The notes beneath the pieces were generated by a model that ran no database searches, was not told the origin of the DNA, and saw only the letters and a list, made by a program, of their open reading frames with translations. A stretch of DNA of 64,000 nucleotides, taken from positions 1-64,000 of the forward strand of contig CAIJYD010000047.1 in the NCBI GenBank assembly GCA_903824785.1, read 5' to 3'. This DNA is from an uncultured Bacteroidota bacterium (GTDB taxonomy: Bacteria; Bacteroidota; Bacteroidia; Bacteroidales; VadinHA17). The position numbers were made by a program, and so were the translations under genes. Shown piece after piece: positions 1 through 6,866 of this stretch. Numbering within the stretch: the stretch's first letter is position 1; each line of letters starts with the position of its first letter.

Positions 1-1735
1 CAGTATGGCATGTCTGGCAAACCTGAGAAAACCCGGCTGCTGTATGTTTTGGGTTTGTGGTAGAGATATAATTCTGCTGATGGCACGAATAGCAGTCAGG
101 AGAGGTTGTTGTATAATTATCCCCTTTATGGCAATCGATGCATGCCTTACCGGAATGTCCGAGAGTAAGGGGAAAAATAGTATGATTGAAAGTAGTTGGC
201 TTCCATCCGGCGTTTACAGTATGGCATGTCTGGCAAACCTGAGAAAATCCGGCTGCTGTATGTTTAGGATTTACAGTTGCAGTATAATCCTGCTGGTGGC
301 ATGAATAGCAATCAGAAGGGGTAGATGTGTAATTTCCACCTTTATGGCAATCGGCGCAGGCAGGAGATGAATGTCCAAGAGTAAGAGGAAAACTGGCATG
401 GTTGAATGTAGCAGGTTTCCAGCCGGGAATAGTGTTATGACATGTCTGACAAACCTGAGGAAAACCTGAGGCAATATGATTTGGATTTAAAGTAGAAATA
501 TAATTCTGCTGATGACACGAATAGCAGTCAGGAGAGGTTGTTGTATAATTATCCCCCTTATGGCAATCGATGCATGCCTGACCGGAATGTCCGAGTGTGA
601 GTGGAAAAACAGTATGATTGAAAGTAGTTGGTTTCCACCCGGGGTTTGCAGTATGGCATGTCTGACAAACCTGAGAAAACCCGGCTGCTGAATGTTTAGG
701 ATTTACAGTAGAGGTATAATCCTGCTGGTGGCACGAATAGCAGTCAGGAGAGGTTGTTGTATAATTATCCCCTTTATGGCAATCGACACATGCCTTACCG
801 GAATGTCCGAGAGTGAGTGGAAAAACAGCATGATTGAAAGTAGTTGGCTTCCATCCGGGGTTTACAGTATGGCATGTCTGGCACACCTGAGAAAATCCGG
901 CTGCTGTATGTTTAGGATTTACAGTTGCAGTATAATCCTGCTGGTGGCATGAATAGCAATCAGAAGGGGTTGATGTGTAATTTCCACCTTTATGACAATC
1001 GGCACAGGCTGGTGTTGAATGACCAAGTGTAAGAGAAAAACTGCTATGGTTAAAAACAGCCGGTTTCCACCCCGGATTTACTGTATGACAAGTCTGACAC
1101 ACTTGGGGATAACCTATAGCAACATGATTTGGGTTTGTGGTAGAAATATAATTCTGCTGATGACATGAATAGCAATCAGGTGAGGTTGTTGTATAATTAT
1201 CCCCTTTGTGGCATTCAATACAAGTCGGACCGGAATGTCCAAGTGTGAGAGGAAAACTGCTGTGCTTAAACGTAGTCGGTTTCCAGCCGGGTGTAATAGA
1301 ATGGCAGGTCTGGCAAGCCTGGGAAAAACCGGCCGCAGCATGTTTAGGATTGGTGGTTGAAAGATAATTCTGCTGATGGCAGGAATAACAATCTGATGGT
1401 GTTGTCTTATAATTTCCATCTTTATGGCAATCAGAACATACCGGAGAAGAATGACCCTGAACTAATGGAAATACGGTATGATCGAATGAGGTTGGTTTCC
1501 ATCCGGAGTTAAGAGAATGACAAGTTGCGCAATCTTTGGAAATACCTGATTTATTATGATCCGGGGCTTTGGCTGAAAGGTAATCCTGCTCATGACACGA
1601 ATAACAATCTGCAGGGGTTGTTGTATAATTCCCCGCTTTGTGACAATCAATACACGCAGGTACAGAATGCCCCAGTTTAAGAGGAAAACGGTCGTGGTTA
1701 AAACTGGTAGGTTTCCATCCCGGACTTAAAGTATG
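1..1735. repeat. Tandem 216-bp coding repeat, eight full units
   Basis: Inside the cytochrome gene, the histidine codon of the first haem motif recurs at 7, 223, 439, 655, 871, 1087, 1303, 1519 and 1735, exactly 216 bp apart. There is therefore no length drift over eight units. A higher order is also visible: the stretch from 1 to about 370 is much closer to 649-1018 than to its direct neighbour, giving a 648-bp (three-unit, nine-haem) superrepeat. The next motif upstream is at 1954, 219 bp away, so the regular array ends there. Confidence 0.93.
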
Positions 1736-2497
1736 ACAATCGAGGCAGTTCGTTGAGAGCAATGATGCACCATGGTCAGGTTTTGTTGTTGCAAGATAAT
1801 CCTTCTGATGACAGGAATTACAGTCGGTACTTGCATCGGTATAATTTCCCGTTGTATGACATTCGGCACATTTGGCTGTTGAATGTGCCTGTGCCAGAGG
1901 GAATGAATTATGGCTGAAATCAGAACCTGTCCATTGCAATGAAGTTACCTTATGGCACAAAGTACAATCTTCGGGAAATCCGGACTGAGAATGGTTTGGT
2001 GTTACGGCAGACATATAGCTTTCCTTATGGCAATCAATACATTCAATACCTGGAACATCAAAACGAATCATACTTTCCGATTTATGGCACTGGTAACAAT
2101 CAGCTGTTCTGTGAGCCCCTATAAGTGGGAAACGGCTTTCCTGATGAATTTCATTGATATTATTGACAAGCCATGAGGCCGGAGTATGGCATCTGGAACA
2201 ATCGGGCCCTACTGTTGACTGATGAACATCATTATGACAAGCATTGCATTCACTCTTCGCCTCAGAGAAAACAAGTGTTGGATGGCACAGCCGGCAGTTT
2301 ATCTCTTTATGCTGTCCTTCAAGCGACAATCTGGTACTGCTATGGTTAAATGAGTAAATTTCTTTATCAAGTTGCCATCCCTTTGAACTGTGACAGATGG
2401 TACAACTCACCTTAAAATCGGAACCATGTGGTGAATCTGTCCGTCTGCTAAAGGAGCCAATCATTAAGAAAGCCAACAGTAATGGAAGAAACTGCAT
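1..2497 (-). CDS. Giant secreted multiheme c-type cytochrome (3' end beyond window)
   Basis: The minus frame opened by ATG at 2497 stays open to position 1 with no stop, so at least 832 residues are visible and the C-terminus lies outside. It starts with a signal peptide (MQFLPLLLAFLMIGSFS). I count 34 CxxCH haem c attachment motifs, for example CTICH, CNACH, CYSCH and CQTCH. After a divergent N-terminal third (about ten haems), the protein becomes a strict 72-residue repeat with three CxxCH (CQTCH, CxDCH, CYSCH). Each repeat also has three conserved non-motif histidines (in FNH, LGHS and NPKH/NPNH), which would fit bis-histidine ligation of three haems. Conserved W and Y residues (GWKP, NYT) lie between the haems. 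Multiheme cytochromes of this kind act outside the cytoplasmic membrane as electron conduits; the partner and acceptor are not visible here. The start is preceded by an in-frame stop and a possible promoter. Confidence 0.9.
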   Translation of the reverse strand, partial: MQFLPLLLAFLMIGSFSRRTDSPHGSDFKVSCTICHSSKGWQLDKEIYSFNHSSTRLSLEGQHKEINCRLCHPTLVFSEAKSECNACHNDVHQSTVGPDCSRCHTPASWLVNNINEIHQESRFPLIGAHRTADCYQCHKSESMIRFDVPGIECIDCHKESYMSAVTPNHSQSGFPEDCTLCHKVTSLQWTGSDFSHNSFPLAQAHSTAKCAECHTTGNYTDASTDCNSCHQKDYLATTKPDHGASLLSTNCLDCHTLSPGWKPTSFNHDRFPLKLGHSVPACIDCHKAGNYTTTPADCYSCHEQDYLSAKAPDHNKSGISKDCATCHSLNSGWKPTSFDHTVFPLVQGHSSPVCSDCHKDGNYKTTPSDCYSCHQQNYLSTTNPKHAAAGFSQACQTCHSITPGWKPTTFKHSSFPLTLGHSGPTCIECHKGDNYTTTSPDCYSCHQQNYISTTNPNHVAIGYPQVCQTCHTVNPGWKPAVFNHSSFSLTLGHSTPACADCHKGGNYTSTPSDCYSCHQQDYTATVNPKHTAAGFSQVCQTCHTVNPGWKPTTFNHAVFPLTLGHSGKACVDCHKGDNYTTTSPDCYSCHQQDYTSTVNPKHSAAGFSQVCQTCHTANPGWKPTTFNHTVFPLTLGHSGQACIDCHKGDNYTTTSPDCYSCHQQNYISTLNPNHIASGFPQVCQTCHNTIPGWKPATFNHASFPLTLGHSSPACADCHKGGNYTSTPSDCYSCHQQDYTATVNPKHTAAGFSQVCQTCHTVNAGWKPTTFNHTIFPLTLGHSGKACIDCHKGDNYTTTSPDCYSCHQQNYISTTNPKHTAAGFSQVCQTCHT

Positions 2498-2511
2498 TTG
2501 AAATGTATTAG

Positions 2512-2541
2512 TCAATATACTGATTTATAGCACTTCACAAA
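2512..2541 (-). promoter_or_regulatory. Possible promoter of the multiheme cytochrome
   Basis: On the minus strand, TTTG (2541-2538) is followed after 18 bases by TATATTGA (2519-2512). This is one or two mismatches from the Bacteroidota -33/-7 consensus, and it lies 15 bases upstream of the ATG. The short leader makes it uncertain. Confidence 0.3.
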
Positions 2542-2682: not shown

Positions 2683-4500
2683 TCATCCCTTTTTCCCGGA
2701 AAAACCCTTCCGCTTTTTGAAATCATTTTCAGGACCGGTACTTTTTTTATACCAGAAAAAGAACTCTTTCTGTTTTCTTTTATCCTCAATAGTTCTTGCA
2801 ACAAAAACCTTCTTTCCTGAAAAGGGGTCAAAGCCTGTATAATACATCAGCGTTGAAAGGGTCATTGGCGTTGGAGTAAAATCCTGCACCTGTTCAGGCT
2901 TTATCCCGAGGCTCTTAACCTCGGCTGCAAGTTCTTTCATATCAGCATCGGTGCACCCGGGGTGTGATGAAATAAAATAAGGGATAATCTCATATTTAAG
3001 ATCATTTCTGATTCTAATTCCATCAAACCTTTTTTTAAGCTTCCTGAAGAGATCAAAAGGAGCTTTTCGCATATGTGACAATACTCCGGGGGAAATGTGC
3101 TCCGGAGCCACTTTCAGCCGGCCTGACACATGGTTTTTTACAAGCTCTTCAAGATATTCACCTTCGTCTCTTCCGGCACTTTTATTCCACTCCGGAAACA
3201 GTAGATCATAGCGAACACCACTGCCGATAAATGATTTCCTGATGCCTTCCACTTTATCTACTTTCCTGTAAAGTTCAGTAAGATGCTTATGATTTGTATT
3301 AAGGTTTTTGCATATAGCAGGCCAGATGCAGGAAGGTCTTGAACAGGCTTGGCAAAGCTTCATTTCCTTTCCTTTCATTCTGTACATATTTGCTGACGGA
3401 CCGCCAAGGTCGGAGAGATAACCCTTAAAATCCGGAAGTCCTGAAATTTTAATAACCTCGTCAATAATCGACCTTTCTGACCGGCTTATTATCTGTTTAC
3501 CCTGATGGGCGGCTATTGCACAAAAACTACAACCTCCAAAACAGCCCCGATGAATATTCACCGAAAATTTTATCATTTCATAAGCAGGAATATCCTCCTT
3601 CTTATTATAACGTGGATGAGGCAAATACATATAGGGCAGATCGAATGAGCGGTCGGCCTCCTCCTCTCCCATCGGCAGAAAAGAGGGGTTGATTATCACG
3701 TTAACATCACCTGATGGTTCAGTCAGCCTGGCCTGTTCAATTTTGTTCGATTCCTTTTCAAACTTCACGAAATTTTCTGAAAACAGGTTTTTATCCCTCA
3801 GACATTTTTCGAAGGAATGAAGCGGGATCTCTTTCCATTTTTTCTGCATTGGCAGGGGATCATCCTTTTTTGCCAAAATTACTGTCTGTGGAACAGTTTT
3901 CAGGGATGAAAAGGGAGCTCCTGATGCTAACAGTTTTAAAAGCTCTCTCAGAGGTTGCTCTCCCATACCATAAATCAGCATATCCGCCCCACTGCTTAAA
4001 AGGATGGAAGGTTCGAGTTTATCTTTCCAGTAATCGTAATGAGTAAGCCGTCGCATGGAAGCTTCTATACCTCCTATAACAACCGGAACATCCGGAAAGA
4101 TCTCCTTTAGAATTTTAGTATATACGATAGTAGGATAATCGGGTCTGAAACCAGCTTTCCCGCCCGGTGTATAAGCATCATCGGACCTTAAGCGACGGGC
4201 GGCAGTATAATGGTTGACCATCGAATCCATATTTCCGGCGGTAACTCCAAAAAAAAGCTTTGGCTTTCCAAGCTTGCGAAAATCCCTTAAATCGTCTTTC
4301 CAGTTAGGCTGCGGAACAATTGCACAACGCAGGCCGGCTTCCTCAATTACTCTTCCAATAACTGCCGGGCCAAAAGATGGATGATCCACATAGGCATCAC
4401 CACTGAAAATTATCACATCAAGTTCGTCCCATCCGAGTAACAAGGCCTCTTTGCTGGTTGTCGGGAGCCAGTCTTTATTGAAAATAGATTGAGTTTTCAC
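2683..4500 (-). CDS. ygiQ: YgiQ family radical SAM protein
   Basis: 605 residues. The N-terminal UPF0313/YgiQ domain carries family signatures such as GWDELDVIIFSGDAYVDHPS and GGIEASMRRLTHYDYW. A radical SAM CxxxCxxC cluster follows in NIHRGCFGGCSFC (Cys about 320, 324, 327), which binds a [4Fe-4S] cluster and S-adenosylmethionine. The C-terminus has the family's DFTPTPMTLSTLMYYTGFDP block and a basic tail. Length is slightly under the E. coli homologue. The substrate of YgiQ is not established. It is divergent from the patatin gene, and a TACCTTTG -7 element lies just upstream. Confidence 0.93.
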   Translation of the reverse strand: MKTQSIFNKDWLPTTSKEALLLGWDELDVIIFSGDAYVDHPSFGPAVIGRVIEEAGLRCAIVPQPNWKDDLRDFRKLGKPKLFFGVTAGNMDSMVNHYTAARRLRSDDAYTPGGKAGFRPDYPTIVYTKILKEIFPDVPVVIGGIEASMRRLTHYDYWKDKLEPSILLSSGADMLIYGMGEQPLRELLKLLASGAPFSSLKTVPQTVILAKKDDPLPMQKKWKEIPLHSFEKCLRDKNLFSENFVKFEKESNKIEQARLTEPSGDVNVIINPSFLPMGEEEADRSFDLPYMYLPHPRYNKKEDIPAYEMIKFSVNIHRGCFGGCSFCAIAAHQGKQIISRSERSIIDEVIKISGLPDFKGYLSDLGGPSANMYRMKGKEMKLCQACSRPSCIWPAICKNLNTNHKHLTELYRKVDKVEGIRKSFIGSGVRYDLLFPEWNKSAGRDEGEYLEELVKNHVSGRLKVAPEHISPGVLSHMRKAPFDLFRKLKKRFDGIRIRNDLKYEIIPYFISSHPGCTDADMKELAAEVKSLGIKPEQVQDFTPTPMTLSTLMYYTGFDPFSGKKVFVARTIEDKRKQKEFFFWYKKSTGPENDFKKRKGFSGKKG

Positions 4501-4565: not shown

Positions 4566-6866
4566 GTGCTAAATATGAAAACAAGTTCTATCTGTTTAAT
4601 GCCTGATTATCAAAGATTAGTATTGAAATATATCCTGTTTTTTCTTTTGATTCCCTTCAGCCATTTTAATATTCAGGCACAGGAAATTGCCAAAAGGCCC
4701 GGTGTTGGTCTTGTACTTAGCGGAGGCGGAGCTCACGGTATAGCCCATCTGGGTGTTATTAAGGTAATGGAAGAGGCAGGATTAAGACCCGATTATATAA
4801 CCGGAGTAAGTATGGGGAGTATAATTGGCGGATTTTATTCTTTAGGATATTCTGCTGACAGCCTTTTAAAGATCTTAAAAAAGATAAACTGGAATCTTAT
4901 CCTTTCGAATAAGATCCCTGAAAACAAAGTAATTTTTCTTGAAAAAAGCCATTTCGACAACAGCATTATTTCATTGCCTCTTTCATATAATAAGGTTCAG
5001 TTTCCTTTAGGACTTATTAACGGGCAACAGGTTGAGAACACACTGAGTTTTTACGCCTGGCCGGCAGCAGATATTAAGGATTTTTCAAAACTTCCCATTC
5101 CTTTTATGTGCGTAGGAGCAGATATTATTACCTACAGAAGAATCGATCTGAAGAGCGGATACCTGCCCGATGCCATCAGGGCAAGCTTTTCAGTTCCTTC
5201 AGTATTTACTCCCCTGAAAATAGATACCATGCTTCTTCTTGACGGAGGGTTAATAAGAAACTTTGCCGCAAGTGAAGCAAAAGAGATGGGTGCAGAAATT
5301 CTTATTGGCTCCTATGTTGGCTTCGAAGCCTATAAAGAAGAAGATCTTCAGTCATTATCAGGAATTATGAAGCAGATTGCCATGTACAGAAGTCTGGAGG
5401 ATTTCAAAGAGGAGAAAAAAAAGATAAAATTTCTTATTAAACCGAATACTGATGGGCTTCCGATAACAAATTTTGAAAATGTGGATTCACTGCTTGAAAG
5501 AGGATATAAGGCTGCTTTGCCGTTTAAAGAATCTTTCAGAAAACTGGCAGATTCACTCAACCAGATAAGGAAACAGGAACCTTTAAAAAACATTCTCGAC
5601 AAACAAACATATGCTTTCGACAGGATTGAGATAAAGGGCAACAAAGATTATTCGGATTTTCAGATTCTCGGGGTGCTTGACATTGAACCGAAAAAGAAAG
5701 TTGATAAATATATACTGAGTGAAAGAATTGAACTTCTTTACGGAAAGGGTTGGTTTGATAAAGTGAAATACAGGATTGTACCCAGAAATGATTCGCTGAT
5801 ACTGGTTATAGACTGTATAGAAAAACCACTTGCAATGCTTTATGGTTCTGTGCATTACGATAATTCACTTAGCTCAGGGCTAATAGCCGGGATATCAGTA
5901 AAGAACCTTCTGACTCAGAGATCTGTAATCAATTTAAACTCATTTCTGGGTCAGTATTACAGGTTAAAACTTGATTACCTCCAGTTTCTCGACAGAAATC
6001 AGAAATTCGGTTTATCAACAAGTTTTTATGCTGATAATACACTGATCCCCATGCTGGAACTGCGAGGTAAAAAGGGAGATGTAATCGGCAGGAATTTTAT
6101 GCCGGCATTGACGTTAAATAAAAGAATAGGACTTAACCAGATGATGAGCGTATCGTTAAATTACAATAACCTTAACCTTATCCTTCACTATGATTCGGAC
6201 GACCATCCAAGTACCATTTCGTACAATTATGCATCAGTTACATACGATTATCAGATAAACTCTCTCGACATAAAGCATTTTCCCGATAAAGGAACAATAT
6301 TCAACACATCGCTCAGCACATCAAAGCTTATCTCGGGAGGAATAAAAACAGATACTTCAAAAACATTATTCAGAGAAGGGAATAATGGTGAGTTTTCATT
6401 CGGACGATTCTATACTTTATACGGTTCCATTAAACATTTTTATTCCCCTTCCGGAAAACTGACCTTAGGATTTGGTGCGGATGTGCTTTACATAACCGAC
6501 TCCGACTCGTTGTCATCGCAAAATAATTTCTTTCTTCTGGGAGGAATAGAATCGCTGAATAAAAGATCTGTTCCACTTGTTGGCTTTCATCCGAACCAGA
6601 TTCCTGTAAAAAAAATGGCAGGGATCCGGTCCGAGTTCGACCTTGAACTCTACGAAAAGCTTCACCTGGAGATGATGGCTAATGTTTTTGCCATTTCGGA
6701 TTTTCACACCAGTAAAAAATTATCAATTCTTACAGGTTACAGCATCGGATTTGGATATCTGTCTATTATCGGGCCAGTCAGAATCGGAATAATGAACGGC
6801 CAGTATAATCATGAAACCTATTTCAGAAAAACAAAAGGTTATATAAGTATCGGGTACAACTTCTGA
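4566..6866 (+). CDS. Patatin-like phospholipase fused to Omp85-type outer-membrane barrel
   Basis: Up to 766 residues. A signal peptide ends around IQAQE. The patatin domain has the oxyanion glycine loop SGGGAHG (Ser about 52), the nucleophile elbow GVSMGS (Ser about 82) and the catalytic Asp in DGG (about 226). This is a complete Ser-Asp dyad. After residue about 350 comes a single POTRA-like segment (FDRIEIKGNKDYSDFQILGV) and then a beta-rich region ending in an aromatic residue (ISIGYNF), typical of a 16-strand Omp85 barrel. This is the PlpD / type V secretion-like architecture, so the lipase is presumably outer-membrane anchored or exposed. The listed start is GTG; ATG at 4575 or 4602 is equally plausible and gives a better signal peptide. 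Confidence 0.88.
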   Translation: MLNMKTSSICLMPDYQRLVLKYILFFLLIPFSHFNIQAQEIAKRPGVGLVLSGGGAHGIAHLGVIKVMEEAGLRPDYITGVSMGSIIGGFYSLGYSADSLLKILKKINWNLILSNKIPENKVIFLEKSHFDNSIISLPLSYNKVQFPLGLINGQQVENTLSFYAWPAADIKDFSKLPIPFMCVGADIITYRRIDLKSGYLPDAIRASFSVPSVFTPLKIDTMLLLDGGLIRNFAASEAKEMGAEILIGSYVGFEAYKEEDLQSLSGIMKQIAMYRSLEDFKEEKKKIKFLIKPNTDGLPITNFENVDSLLERGYKAALPFKESFRKLADSLNQIRKQEPLKNILDKQTYAFDRIEIKGNKDYSDFQILGVLDIEPKKKVDKYILSERIELLYGKGWFDKVKYRIVPRNDSLILVIDCIEKPLAMLYGSVHYDNSLSSGLIAGISVKNLLTQRSVINLNSFLGQYYRLKLDYLQFLDRNQKFGLSTSFYADNTLIPMLELRGKKGDVIGRNFMPALTLNKRIGLNQMMSVSLNYNNLNLILHYDSDDHPSTISYNYASVTYDYQINSLDIKHFPDKGTIFNTSLSTSKLISGGIKTDTSKTLFREGNNGEFSFGRFYTLYGSIKHFYSPSGKLTLGFGADVLYITDSDSLSSQNNFFLLGGIESLNKRSVPLVGFHPNQIPVKKMAGIRSEFDLELYEKLHLEMMANVFAISDFHTSKKLSILTGYSIGFGYLSIIGPVRIGIMNGQYNHETYFRKTKGYISIGYNF

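What the first reader, a model, noticed from the sequence alone, without database searches (positions are those of the whole stretch)
1..2497. Hidden giant multiheme cytochrome with at least 34 haem sites
Because no stop is in the window, a start-to-stop gene call would return only short wrong-frame pieces here. In the correct minus frame there is one unbroken secreted protein with 34 CxxCH motifs in 832 residues, and the array is still running at the edge. Each 72-residue repeat holds three CxxCH and exactly three other conserved histidines, matching bis-His ligation of every haem. A regular, long haem array of this kind would be a good candidate for an electron-conducting filament or surface wire in a Bacteroidota.
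Basis: partly seen in the sequence, partly recalled or inferred. Interest (0 to 1): 0.8.

Follow-up and report, generated by a model that had tools for sequence, protein, structure and literature searches.

The report
Adjustable-length haem wire in Bacteroidota
The gene at the window's edge codes for a very long chain of iron-carrying haem units, and its relatives in many Bacteroidota are made longer or shorter by whole three-haem blocks beside a conserved set of genes that look like electron-export genes, so it is probably a wire of adjustable length for moving electrons out of the cell.

Summary
One open minus-strand frame (2..2497, cut by the contig edge) carries 34 CxxCH in 832 residues; residue shuffles give 0.44 on average. 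A second contig of the same genome shares an exact 141-base end with it and has the downstream neighbours of a relative's intact locus. Joined, the gene has 1066 codons and 43 CxxCH: a 7-haem N-cap, 11 modules of 72 residues and 3 haems, and a 3-haem C-cap. Each module has three extra invariant His. No C-terminal anchor or sorting domain was found.

The operon recurs in about 10% of sampled genomes of the phylum. The 20-haem partner keeps its haem number; the array protein runs from 10 to 61 haems and follows 10+3n in 78 of 85 frames.

Best reading: a single-chain triheme wire of adjustable length serving a porin-cytochrome conduit. Cell location, direction and any filament are unproven. Giant Bacteroidota cytochromes and variable haem numbers were already in print; I did not find this operon or the 10+3n rule.

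The parts
2..2497 (-). 5' part (832 codons, 34 CxxCH) of the giant multihaem cytochrome gene; continues on contig C75 of the same genome to 43 CxxCH in all
1919..2497 (-). Sec-type signal stretch and N-cap with 7 CxxCH (spacings 36,16,16,34,19,25)
   Evidence: the same cap spacing in relatives; its non-motif His are invariant in 16 aligned members. The signal peptide is judged by eye, no predictor was run
1703..1918 (-). triheme module 1 (72 residues)
1487..1702 (-). triheme module 2
1271..1486 (-). triheme module 3
1055..1270 (-). triheme module 4
839..1054 (-). triheme module 5
623..838 (-). triheme module 6
407..622 (-). triheme module 7
191..406 (-). triheme module 8 (94% identical in DNA to module 5)
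1..190 (-). triheme module 9, cut by the contig end after its third CxxCH
1..141 (.). 141 bases identical to the end of contig C75 (assembly overlap that joins the two pieces)
2683..4500 (-). upstream neighbour, radical SAM protein (PF08497), 77% identical to the gene upstream of the intact operon in relative G014; synteny marker

Best explanation
It is the 5' part of a modular cytochrome wire, called VAR here: a fixed 7-haem N-cap, n triheme modules of about 72 residues, and a fixed 3-haem C-cap, so 10+3n haems, each ligated by its CxxCH His and one further His. In this genome n is at least 11. I propose that VAR works with the conserved operon products: the membrane protein (likely b-haem) and the FeS-flavoprotein deliver electrons from the cytoplasm, the 20-haem cytochrome (MHC20) and the beta-barrel (POR) carry them across the envelope, and VAR is the length-adjustable section that takes them to a distant acceptor or partner. 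Length changes by in-frame duplication and loss of whole modules. Shown here: gene, modules, His count, module-wise length variation, operon conservation, barrel model. Inferred: haem loading, electron flow and its direction, contacts between the proteins, and that VAR lies on the outer side.
For: 43 CxxCH against 44 other His in the joined protein; six invariant His per module in 11 of 11 modules; 10 invariant non-motif His over the first 10 haems in 16 aligned VAR proteins and 20 for the 20 haems of MHC20 in 21 proteins, which fits bis-His electron transfer with no open iron. VAR CxxCH counts are 1 mod 3 in 74 of 85 complete frames, 78 of 85 when CxxxCH is counted too; MHC20 has exactly 20 CxxCH in 67 of 74 complete frames of 450 aa or more. 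All five gene types are present in 64 of 76 loci; of the other 12, ten run into a contig end at the missing gene, L094 and L131 do not (gene tables). MHC20 and VAR frames overlap in 73 of 76 pairs, by 19-28 bases in 63. Caps are better conserved (median identity to the C30 copy 0.49 and 0.53) than inner modules (0.40) in 58 loci, 53 for modules. The POR model has a confident 22-strand barrel. A protein with ResB and cytochrome c assembly domains is in the genome.
Against: No experiment; cell location unknown. VAR shows no lipobox by pattern in 85 distinct frames and no sorting domain, so how it would get outside is unexplained. In this genome the giant VAR stands alone at its locus; the operon elsewhere carries a 13-haem VAR. 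The barrel matches porins and ushers in general; MtrB (6r2q_B) is only rank 41 with TM 0.34. The VAR fold is of low confidence and matched nothing. Models of other cytochromes (HmcA in 39, DmsE in 35 of 54 VAR proteins at E<=0.001) match more members than the nanowire model (18 of 54). The 49-haem VAR of G014 alone had no PDB sequence match at E<=0.01. Seven of 85 VAR frames do not fit 10+3n. MHC20 is no better conserved in sequence (0.49) than the N-cap; only its haem number is.
Confidence: 0.62

Rival explanations
1. Periplasmic wire: VAR stays in the periplasm and bridges inner-membrane donor and outer-membrane conduit, like the periplasmic 'nanowires of hemes' GSU1996 (12 haems) and GSU2210 (27 haems); module number would then follow envelope spacing.
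For: Only a Sec-type signal (by eye), no lipobox, no sorting domain. The best PDB sequence match is 3ov0 for the window protein and for a VAR profile. Periplasmic siting of GSU1996 and GSU2210 is stated in PMC10138318 (passages).
Against: MHC20, with 20 haems at nearly fixed spacing, could already do this. At about 8 A per haem (MtrA, 80 A for 10 haems, PMC7198977, passages) 43 to 61 haems would span about 34 to 49 nm if extended, more than a usual periplasm (general knowledge).
Confidence: 0.3
2. Electron store: the array mainly holds charge, and more modules mean more capacity; length as such does not matter.
For: High haem density and whole-module gain and loss. Capacitor-like roles are proposed for giant Bacteroidota cytochromes in PMC11495043 and for Burkholderiales ones in PMC7399161.
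Against: Operon coupling to a 20-haem cytochrome and a barrel points to through-transport; storage and transport are not exclusive.
Confidence: 0.25
3. Polymeric filament: VAR subunits stack end to end like OmcS, OmcE or OmcZ.
For: Caps are better conserved than the interior, which would allow cap-to-cap contacts.
Against: Length variation within one chain makes polymerisation unnecessary (inference). Genes for filament secretion were not searched for, and the other neighbours were not annotated, so this is untested.
Confidence: 0.1
4. The giant VAR of this genome is a stranded relic at the old operon site, while the C30 operon with the 13-haem VAR does the work.
For: In G014 the same locus, between the radical SAM gene and the hydrogenase genes, holds the whole operon with a 49-haem VAR, while here only VAR is left.
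Against: The joined frame is open over 1066 codons with 43 motifs and no Cys outside them, and pN/pS between modules is 0.32.
Confidence: 0.15

Closest known systems
Triheme c7-type 'nanowire' cytochromes of Geobacter (GSU1996, GSU0592; NCBIfam TIGR04257, Pfam PF14522)
   Same: Tandem triheme modules in one chain. The window protein passes TIGR04257 (71.6 bits, cut-off 40) and PF14522 (143.6 bits, cut-off 24.8); its only PDB sequence hits at E<=0.01 are 3ov0 and 3oue (that these are GSU1996 is recalled).
   Different: 11 modules against 4, caps with 7 and 3 haems, an operon with a barrel, Bacteroidota. The C75 piece (25.4 bits) and the 13-haem sister (15.3) fail the TIGR04257 cut-off, and only 18 of 54 VAR proteins match it at E<=0.001. 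A VAR profile also matches a sixteen-haem cytochrome (1z1n) and MtrF (3pmq). CxxCH spacing here is 16-25-31; that of c7 was not compared.
Porin-cytochrome conduits (Pcc of Geobacter, MtrCAB of Shewanella)
   Same: Barrel gene beside two multihaem cytochromes; MHC20 weakly matches DmsE-type TIGR03508 in 21 of 21 members and, by profile, PDB chain 6r2q_A (E 6e-4, no stretch passing on its own; the list calls it cystathionine beta-synthase, the entry is titled Mtr complex; that chain A is MtrA is recalled).
   Different: Below the family cut-off (51 against 192.2 bits); the best PDB match of MHC20 is 3ov0, not Mtr, and VAR matches TIGR03508 too (35 of 54), so this does not tell MHC20 from VAR. 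POR has no sequence match in the PDB up to E 1, a sub-threshold DUF2490 match and 22 strands against 26 in MtrB (PMC7198977). Haem numbers 20 and 10-61 against 10+10 or 8+12. The 2014 Pcc survey (PMC4245776, passages) names Ignavibacterium album but has no occurrence of 'Bacteroid'.
Homologous giant cytochromes with varying haem number in Burkholderiales (24- and 49-haem pair beside an OmbB-like porin) and Anaerolineales, and Ignavibacteria with up to 40 and 33 motifs (PMC7399161, section 18 in full and passages)
   Same: A constant smaller cytochrome, a porin and a larger cytochrome that changes by CxxCH-containing insertions or deletions, proposed as molecular wires or capacitors.
   Different: No modular 10+3n rule with fixed caps is described in the section read. 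Homology to VAR was not tested.
Bacteroidota secreted cytochromes with more than 100 haem motifs in activated sludge (PMC11495043, passages)
   Same: Same phylum, very high haem numbers, proposed extracellular electron transfer or storage.
   Different: The passages seen describe no operon, porin or module rule. Whether those Saprospiraceae proteins are VAR relatives was not tested.

Membership tests
TIGR04257 c(7)-type triheme 'nanowire' domain proteins | NCBI curated score cut-off 40 bits | tested here: met
   Met by the window protein, 71.6 bits; not met by the C75 piece (25.4) or the 13-haem sister (15.3); 18 of 54 family members at E<=0.001
TIGR04257 c(7)-type triheme 'nanowire' domain proteins | c7 fold with three bis-His haems per module | tested here: inconclusive
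   Three CxxCH and three other invariant His per module; fold prediction of low confidence, no PDB match
Cytochrome_C7 (PF14522) | Pfam gathering score 24.8 | tested here: met
   143.6 bits, 10 stretches
Pcc / MtrCAB porin-cytochrome conduit | Outer-membrane barrel gene clustered with multihaem cytochromes | tested here: met
   As a gene arrangement only: a POR frame found beside MHC20 and VAR in 70 of 76 loci; barrel model. Sites of the proteins not shown
Pcc / MtrCAB porin-cytochrome conduit | Sequence membership of porin (MtrB type) and MtrA/DmsE-type cytochrome | tested here: not met
   POR: no PDB sequence match, no porin family of NCBIfam among its hits; MHC20 51 bits against cut-off 192.2 for TIGR03508
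[quoted passage not shown]
   needs biochemistry or genetics
OmcS/OmcE/OmcZ cytochrome filaments | Polymerisation into extracellular filaments | not testable with these tools
   needs microscopy; the low-confidence model matched no PDB chain

The most novel reading that the evidence does not exclude
Bacteroidota own a widespread porin-cytochrome system of their own (membrane b-type cytochrome, FeS-flavoprotein, fixed 20-haem cytochrome, 22-strand barrel) whose terminal wire is a single polypeptide with a genetic length dial: fixed 7- and 3-haem caps and 0 to 17 triheme modules, so that reach or capacity evolves in discrete three-haem steps, from n=1 to n=13 within one genus, while the haem layout of the rest of the machine stays constant.
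Probability: 0.5. Interest if true: 0.78.

Novelty: new variant of a known kind. Interest (0 to 1): 0.6.

Why it matters
If right, about a tenth of the sampled genomes of the phylum carry an unrecognised electron-export system, in a group that the 2014 survey of such clusters touched only through Ignavibacterium. The quantised haem number makes a direct test possible: the same wire in natural lengths from 10 to 61 haems lets one measure how transport rate, reach and charge storage depend on length, an open question for cytochrome wires. It also warns that short-read genomes break such genes at their repeats, as here and at four of the fetched loci whose array runs off the contig (L118, L123, L127, L135).

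Tried and rejected
A contiguous leftward extension does not exist: window base 1 is the contig's first base. Instead the partner contig end was found. The 11-module count is a minimum, since a repeat-induced break may hide further copies and unbinned contigs cannot be seen.

Structure of the array: predicted with 54 sequences, pLDDT 64.5, pTM 0.29; Foldseek against the PDB gave 0 matches at E<=10. No inter-haem or His-to-iron distances were derived. The barrel model matched 967 chains at E<=10; the first 50 shown were led by FimD and PapC ushers and general porins, with MtrB at rank 41; rejected as evidence for MtrB kinship.

The membrane protein of the operon has no Pfam family above cut-off and no NCBIfam family in its first member; the b-type assignment rests only on six invariant His in 22 sequences. 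RelE/StbE model hits in three VAR proteins were taken as chance.

An anchor, lipobox or sorting domain on VAR was looked for and not found. Four lipobox-like hits came up in other proteins: one POR and two MHC20 in over-long starts, judged by eye, and one MHC20 (L108) that could be a real lipoprotein.

Literature: 'did not find' rests on the searches (open-licence PMC papers only). Papers: PMC7399161 section 18 in full plus passages; passages only of PMC10138318, PMC2825233, PMC12977616, PMC8258643, PMC11475568, PMC4245776, PMC7198977, PMC11495043, PMC9012536, PMC9671151 and PMC13374861; the rest as search listings.

Rows dropped and parts examined: L047, L048 and L051 were left out of the 76-locus counts because they are the same contigs as L054, L057 and L096. 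In one search, 58 of 75 loci were compared with L006; the rest lacked a complete copy of one of the five genes or had a VAR off the 10+3n rule. Operon loci were fetched for 71 other genomes: 11 of the 11 other hits, and 60 more. Of the 38 other hits, G193, G255 and G383 were not fetched; of the 38 other hits, G475, G480, G488, G608, G693, G762, G812 and G850 were not. Frames were called by a simple script that takes the first ATG, GTG or TTG, so starts may be too long. No genomes outside the window's phylum were searched.
Full report
OBSERVATION. The minus frame 2..2515 has 838 codons, no stop before the window edge and 34 CxxCH; the likely start is the ATG at 2497 (832 residues). Shuffling the residues 2000 times gives a mean of 0.44 and at most 4 motifs. 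The finding is real and far above chance. The frame is cut because contig C47 begins at window base 1.

WHERE IT GOES. A search of the same genome with this DNA found C75:49570-50059 at the end of a 50,062-base contig. The last 141 bases of the window frame and the first 141 of C75, read on its minus strand, are identical, and 141 is the only exact end overlap between 20 and 999 bases. An overlap of exactly 141 is what an assembler with k=141 leaves between neighbouring contigs (general knowledge; two relatives' contig titles carry 'k141'). Synteny agrees: in relative G014 the intact operon lies between a radical SAM gene and [FeFe] hydrogenase genes. The window's upstream neighbour is 77% identical to that radical SAM protein. 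On C75, the hydrogenase subunit and the 2Fe-2S thioredoxin-like ferredoxin are 88% identical to those of G014; an adenine deaminase and a small gene lie in between here. Joined, the gene has 1066 codons and 43 CxxCH, with 44 other His and no Cys outside CxxCH. Its parts are a 7-haem N-cap, 11 modules of 72 residues with spacing 16-25-31, and a 3-haem C-cap. Further collapsed copies cannot be excluded.

MODULES. In the 11 modules six His are invariant, three of them outside CxxCH. Mean pS is 0.65 and pN 0.21, uncorrected, so the modules are kept by selection. The three best-matching module pairs lie three modules apart (94, 87 and 84% identity), so blocks of nine haems were probably duplicated. 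Modules are on average more alike within this protein (0.66) than to those of G014 (0.57), but the G014 modules are no more alike among themselves (0.55) than to these, so recent homogenisation shows here and not there.

SISTER AND OPERON. Contig C30 carries a 341-residue sister with 13 CxxCH: the same caps around one module. It lies in an operon: 289-aa membrane protein, 448-aa protein with 4Fe-4S and pyridine nucleotide-disulphide oxidoreductase domains, 527-aa cytochrome with 20 CxxCH (MHC20), the sister, and a 551-aa frame for a barrel (POR). The giant is nearest to the G014 49-haem protein (61% against 49% to its 13-haem one) and the sister to the G014 13-haem protein (64% against 50%), so both lines appear older than the split. 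G014 has everything at one locus; here the giant is left alone at that locus.

DISTRIBUTION. With the 13-haem sister as query, 12 of 146 near relatives match at E<=1e-20 and 38 of 395 genomes of the phylum at E<=1e-30. With MHC20, 39 of 393 genomes of the order (E<=1e-60) and 39 of 395 of the phylum (E<=1e-40) match. All counts include this genome. That the phylum is Bacteroidota rests on the names of the relatives. Of 76 loci (gene tables), 64 have all five gene types. Of the 12 others, ten run into a contig end at the missing gene; in L094 and L131 no membrane-protein frame was recognised. In ten loci (L138-L147) the FeS-flavoprotein gene follows the barrel instead of preceding the cytochromes. 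Thirteen of 76 loci hold more than one VAR frame, some of them pieces of one broken gene. Four loci come from genomes in one contig, with VAR of 43, 28, 37 and 34 haems (L124, L128, L129, L131), so long arrays are not only a short-read effect.

THE RULE. Of 85 complete VAR frames, 74 have a CxxCH count of 1 mod 3; with CxxxCH sites counted, 78 fit 10+3n, with values from 10 to 61. The seven misfits are L062, L064, L101 (two frames), L112, L135 and L146. L062 and L101 look like frames broken in two, and a tool row shows stops inside the L064 copy; the others were not resolved. MHC20 has exactly 20 CxxCH in 67 of 74 complete frames of 450 aa or more (others 19 three times, 23 three times, 38 once), with nearly fixed spacing; shorter frames, such as L131 with 16, were left out of that count. 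The sequences are related, so these are not independent trials. Within this genus, operon and sister VARs range from 13 to 49 haems. Caps are better conserved than inner modules (medians 0.49, 0.53 and 0.40 to the C30 copy; 58 loci, 53 for modules); for comparison MHC20 0.49, POR 0.41, membrane protein 0.54, FeS-flavoprotein 0.64. MHC20 and VAR frames overlap in 73 of 76 pairs, by 19-28 bases in 63, which suggests coupled translation.

HAEM LIGANDS. In 21 MHC20 proteins exactly 20 non-motif His are invariant; in 16 VAR proteins 10 are invariant over the first 10 haems. One spare His per haem fits bis-His electron transfer and leaves no site for catalysis (inference). A protein with ResB and cytochrome c assembly domains in this genome (L066 3224-6007) could attach the haems.

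BARREL AND MEMBRANE PARTS. POR is predicted with mean pLDDT 88.4, pTM 0.67: a small beta domain and 22 strands (counted from the listing). Its PDB matches are ushers and porins in general. The 289-aa protein has six His invariant in 22 sequences (H56, H95, H109, H259, H262, H276), so b haems are likely but unproven.

HOW IT PROBABLY WORKS. Electrons from a cytoplasmic donor pass through the FeS-flavoprotein and membrane protein to MHC20, cross the outer membrane with POR, and run along VAR to an acceptor. All of this is inferred from gene content. At the 8 A per haem of MtrA (80 A for 10 haems, PMC7198977), 13, 43 and 61 haems would reach about 10, 34 and 49 nm if extended. Which cytochrome sits in the barrel and on which side VAR lies is open: family models do not separate them (TIGR03508 matches 21 of 21 MHC20 and 35 of 54 VAR proteins), and the lack of any lipobox or sorting domain on VAR keeps the periplasmic rival alive.

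WHAT IS KNOWN. Triheme wires (GSU1996 with 12 haems) and the 27-haem GSU2210 are described as periplasmic (PMC10138318). Variable haem number beside a porin is described in Burkholderiales, and Ignavibacteria with up to 40 motifs and porin-cytochrome clusters in the same paper (PMC7399161). Bacteroidota with >100-haem cytochromes are mentioned (PMC11495043), and an anode-enriched Bacteroidetes MAG with a seven-gene cluster, six of them multihaem cytochromes, is reported (PMC8258643; whether it is this operon was not tested). Archaeal cytochromes reach 86 motifs (PMC9012536), so haem number alone is no record. The operon with a fixed 20-haem partner and the 10+3n rule was not found. Hence 'new variant of a known kind'.

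Noticed in passing
L067 6893-8413 (+), contig C22 of this genome: A 506-aa protein joins a NapC/NirT-type cytochrome N-terminus (PF03264) to an FGE-sulfatase domain (PF03781).
   Followed up: no
window 4566-6866 (+): Patatin-like phospholipase followed by an Omp85-type barrel in one 766-aa frame.
   Followed up: no
L114, L115, L117 and L143: The otherwise fixed 20-haem partner has 23 CxxCH in three loci, and L143 has a second, 1004-aa relative with 38 CxxCH next to it.
   Followed up: no
L058, L059, L060, L049, L052: In these VAR proteins the C-cap-like spacing (37,15,28 or 35,15,28) recurs inside the array, as if length grew partly in nine-haem blocks (22, 31, 34, 40 haems).
   Followed up: partly
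L089, L090, L092, L099: CxxxCH (three residues between the Cys) occurs in VAR where the spacing list shows a gap of 42 in place of 15 and about 27.
   Followed up: partly
L062 3773-5430 and L064 8146-9093: VAR frames of two relatives look broken; whether this is real or a sequencing fault is unknown. Pieces were only counted apart.
   Followed up: no
L131 8005-9150 (-): In a one-contig genome the MHC20 frame is only 381 aa with 16 CxxCH and no membrane-protein frame was recognised upstream.
   Followed up: no
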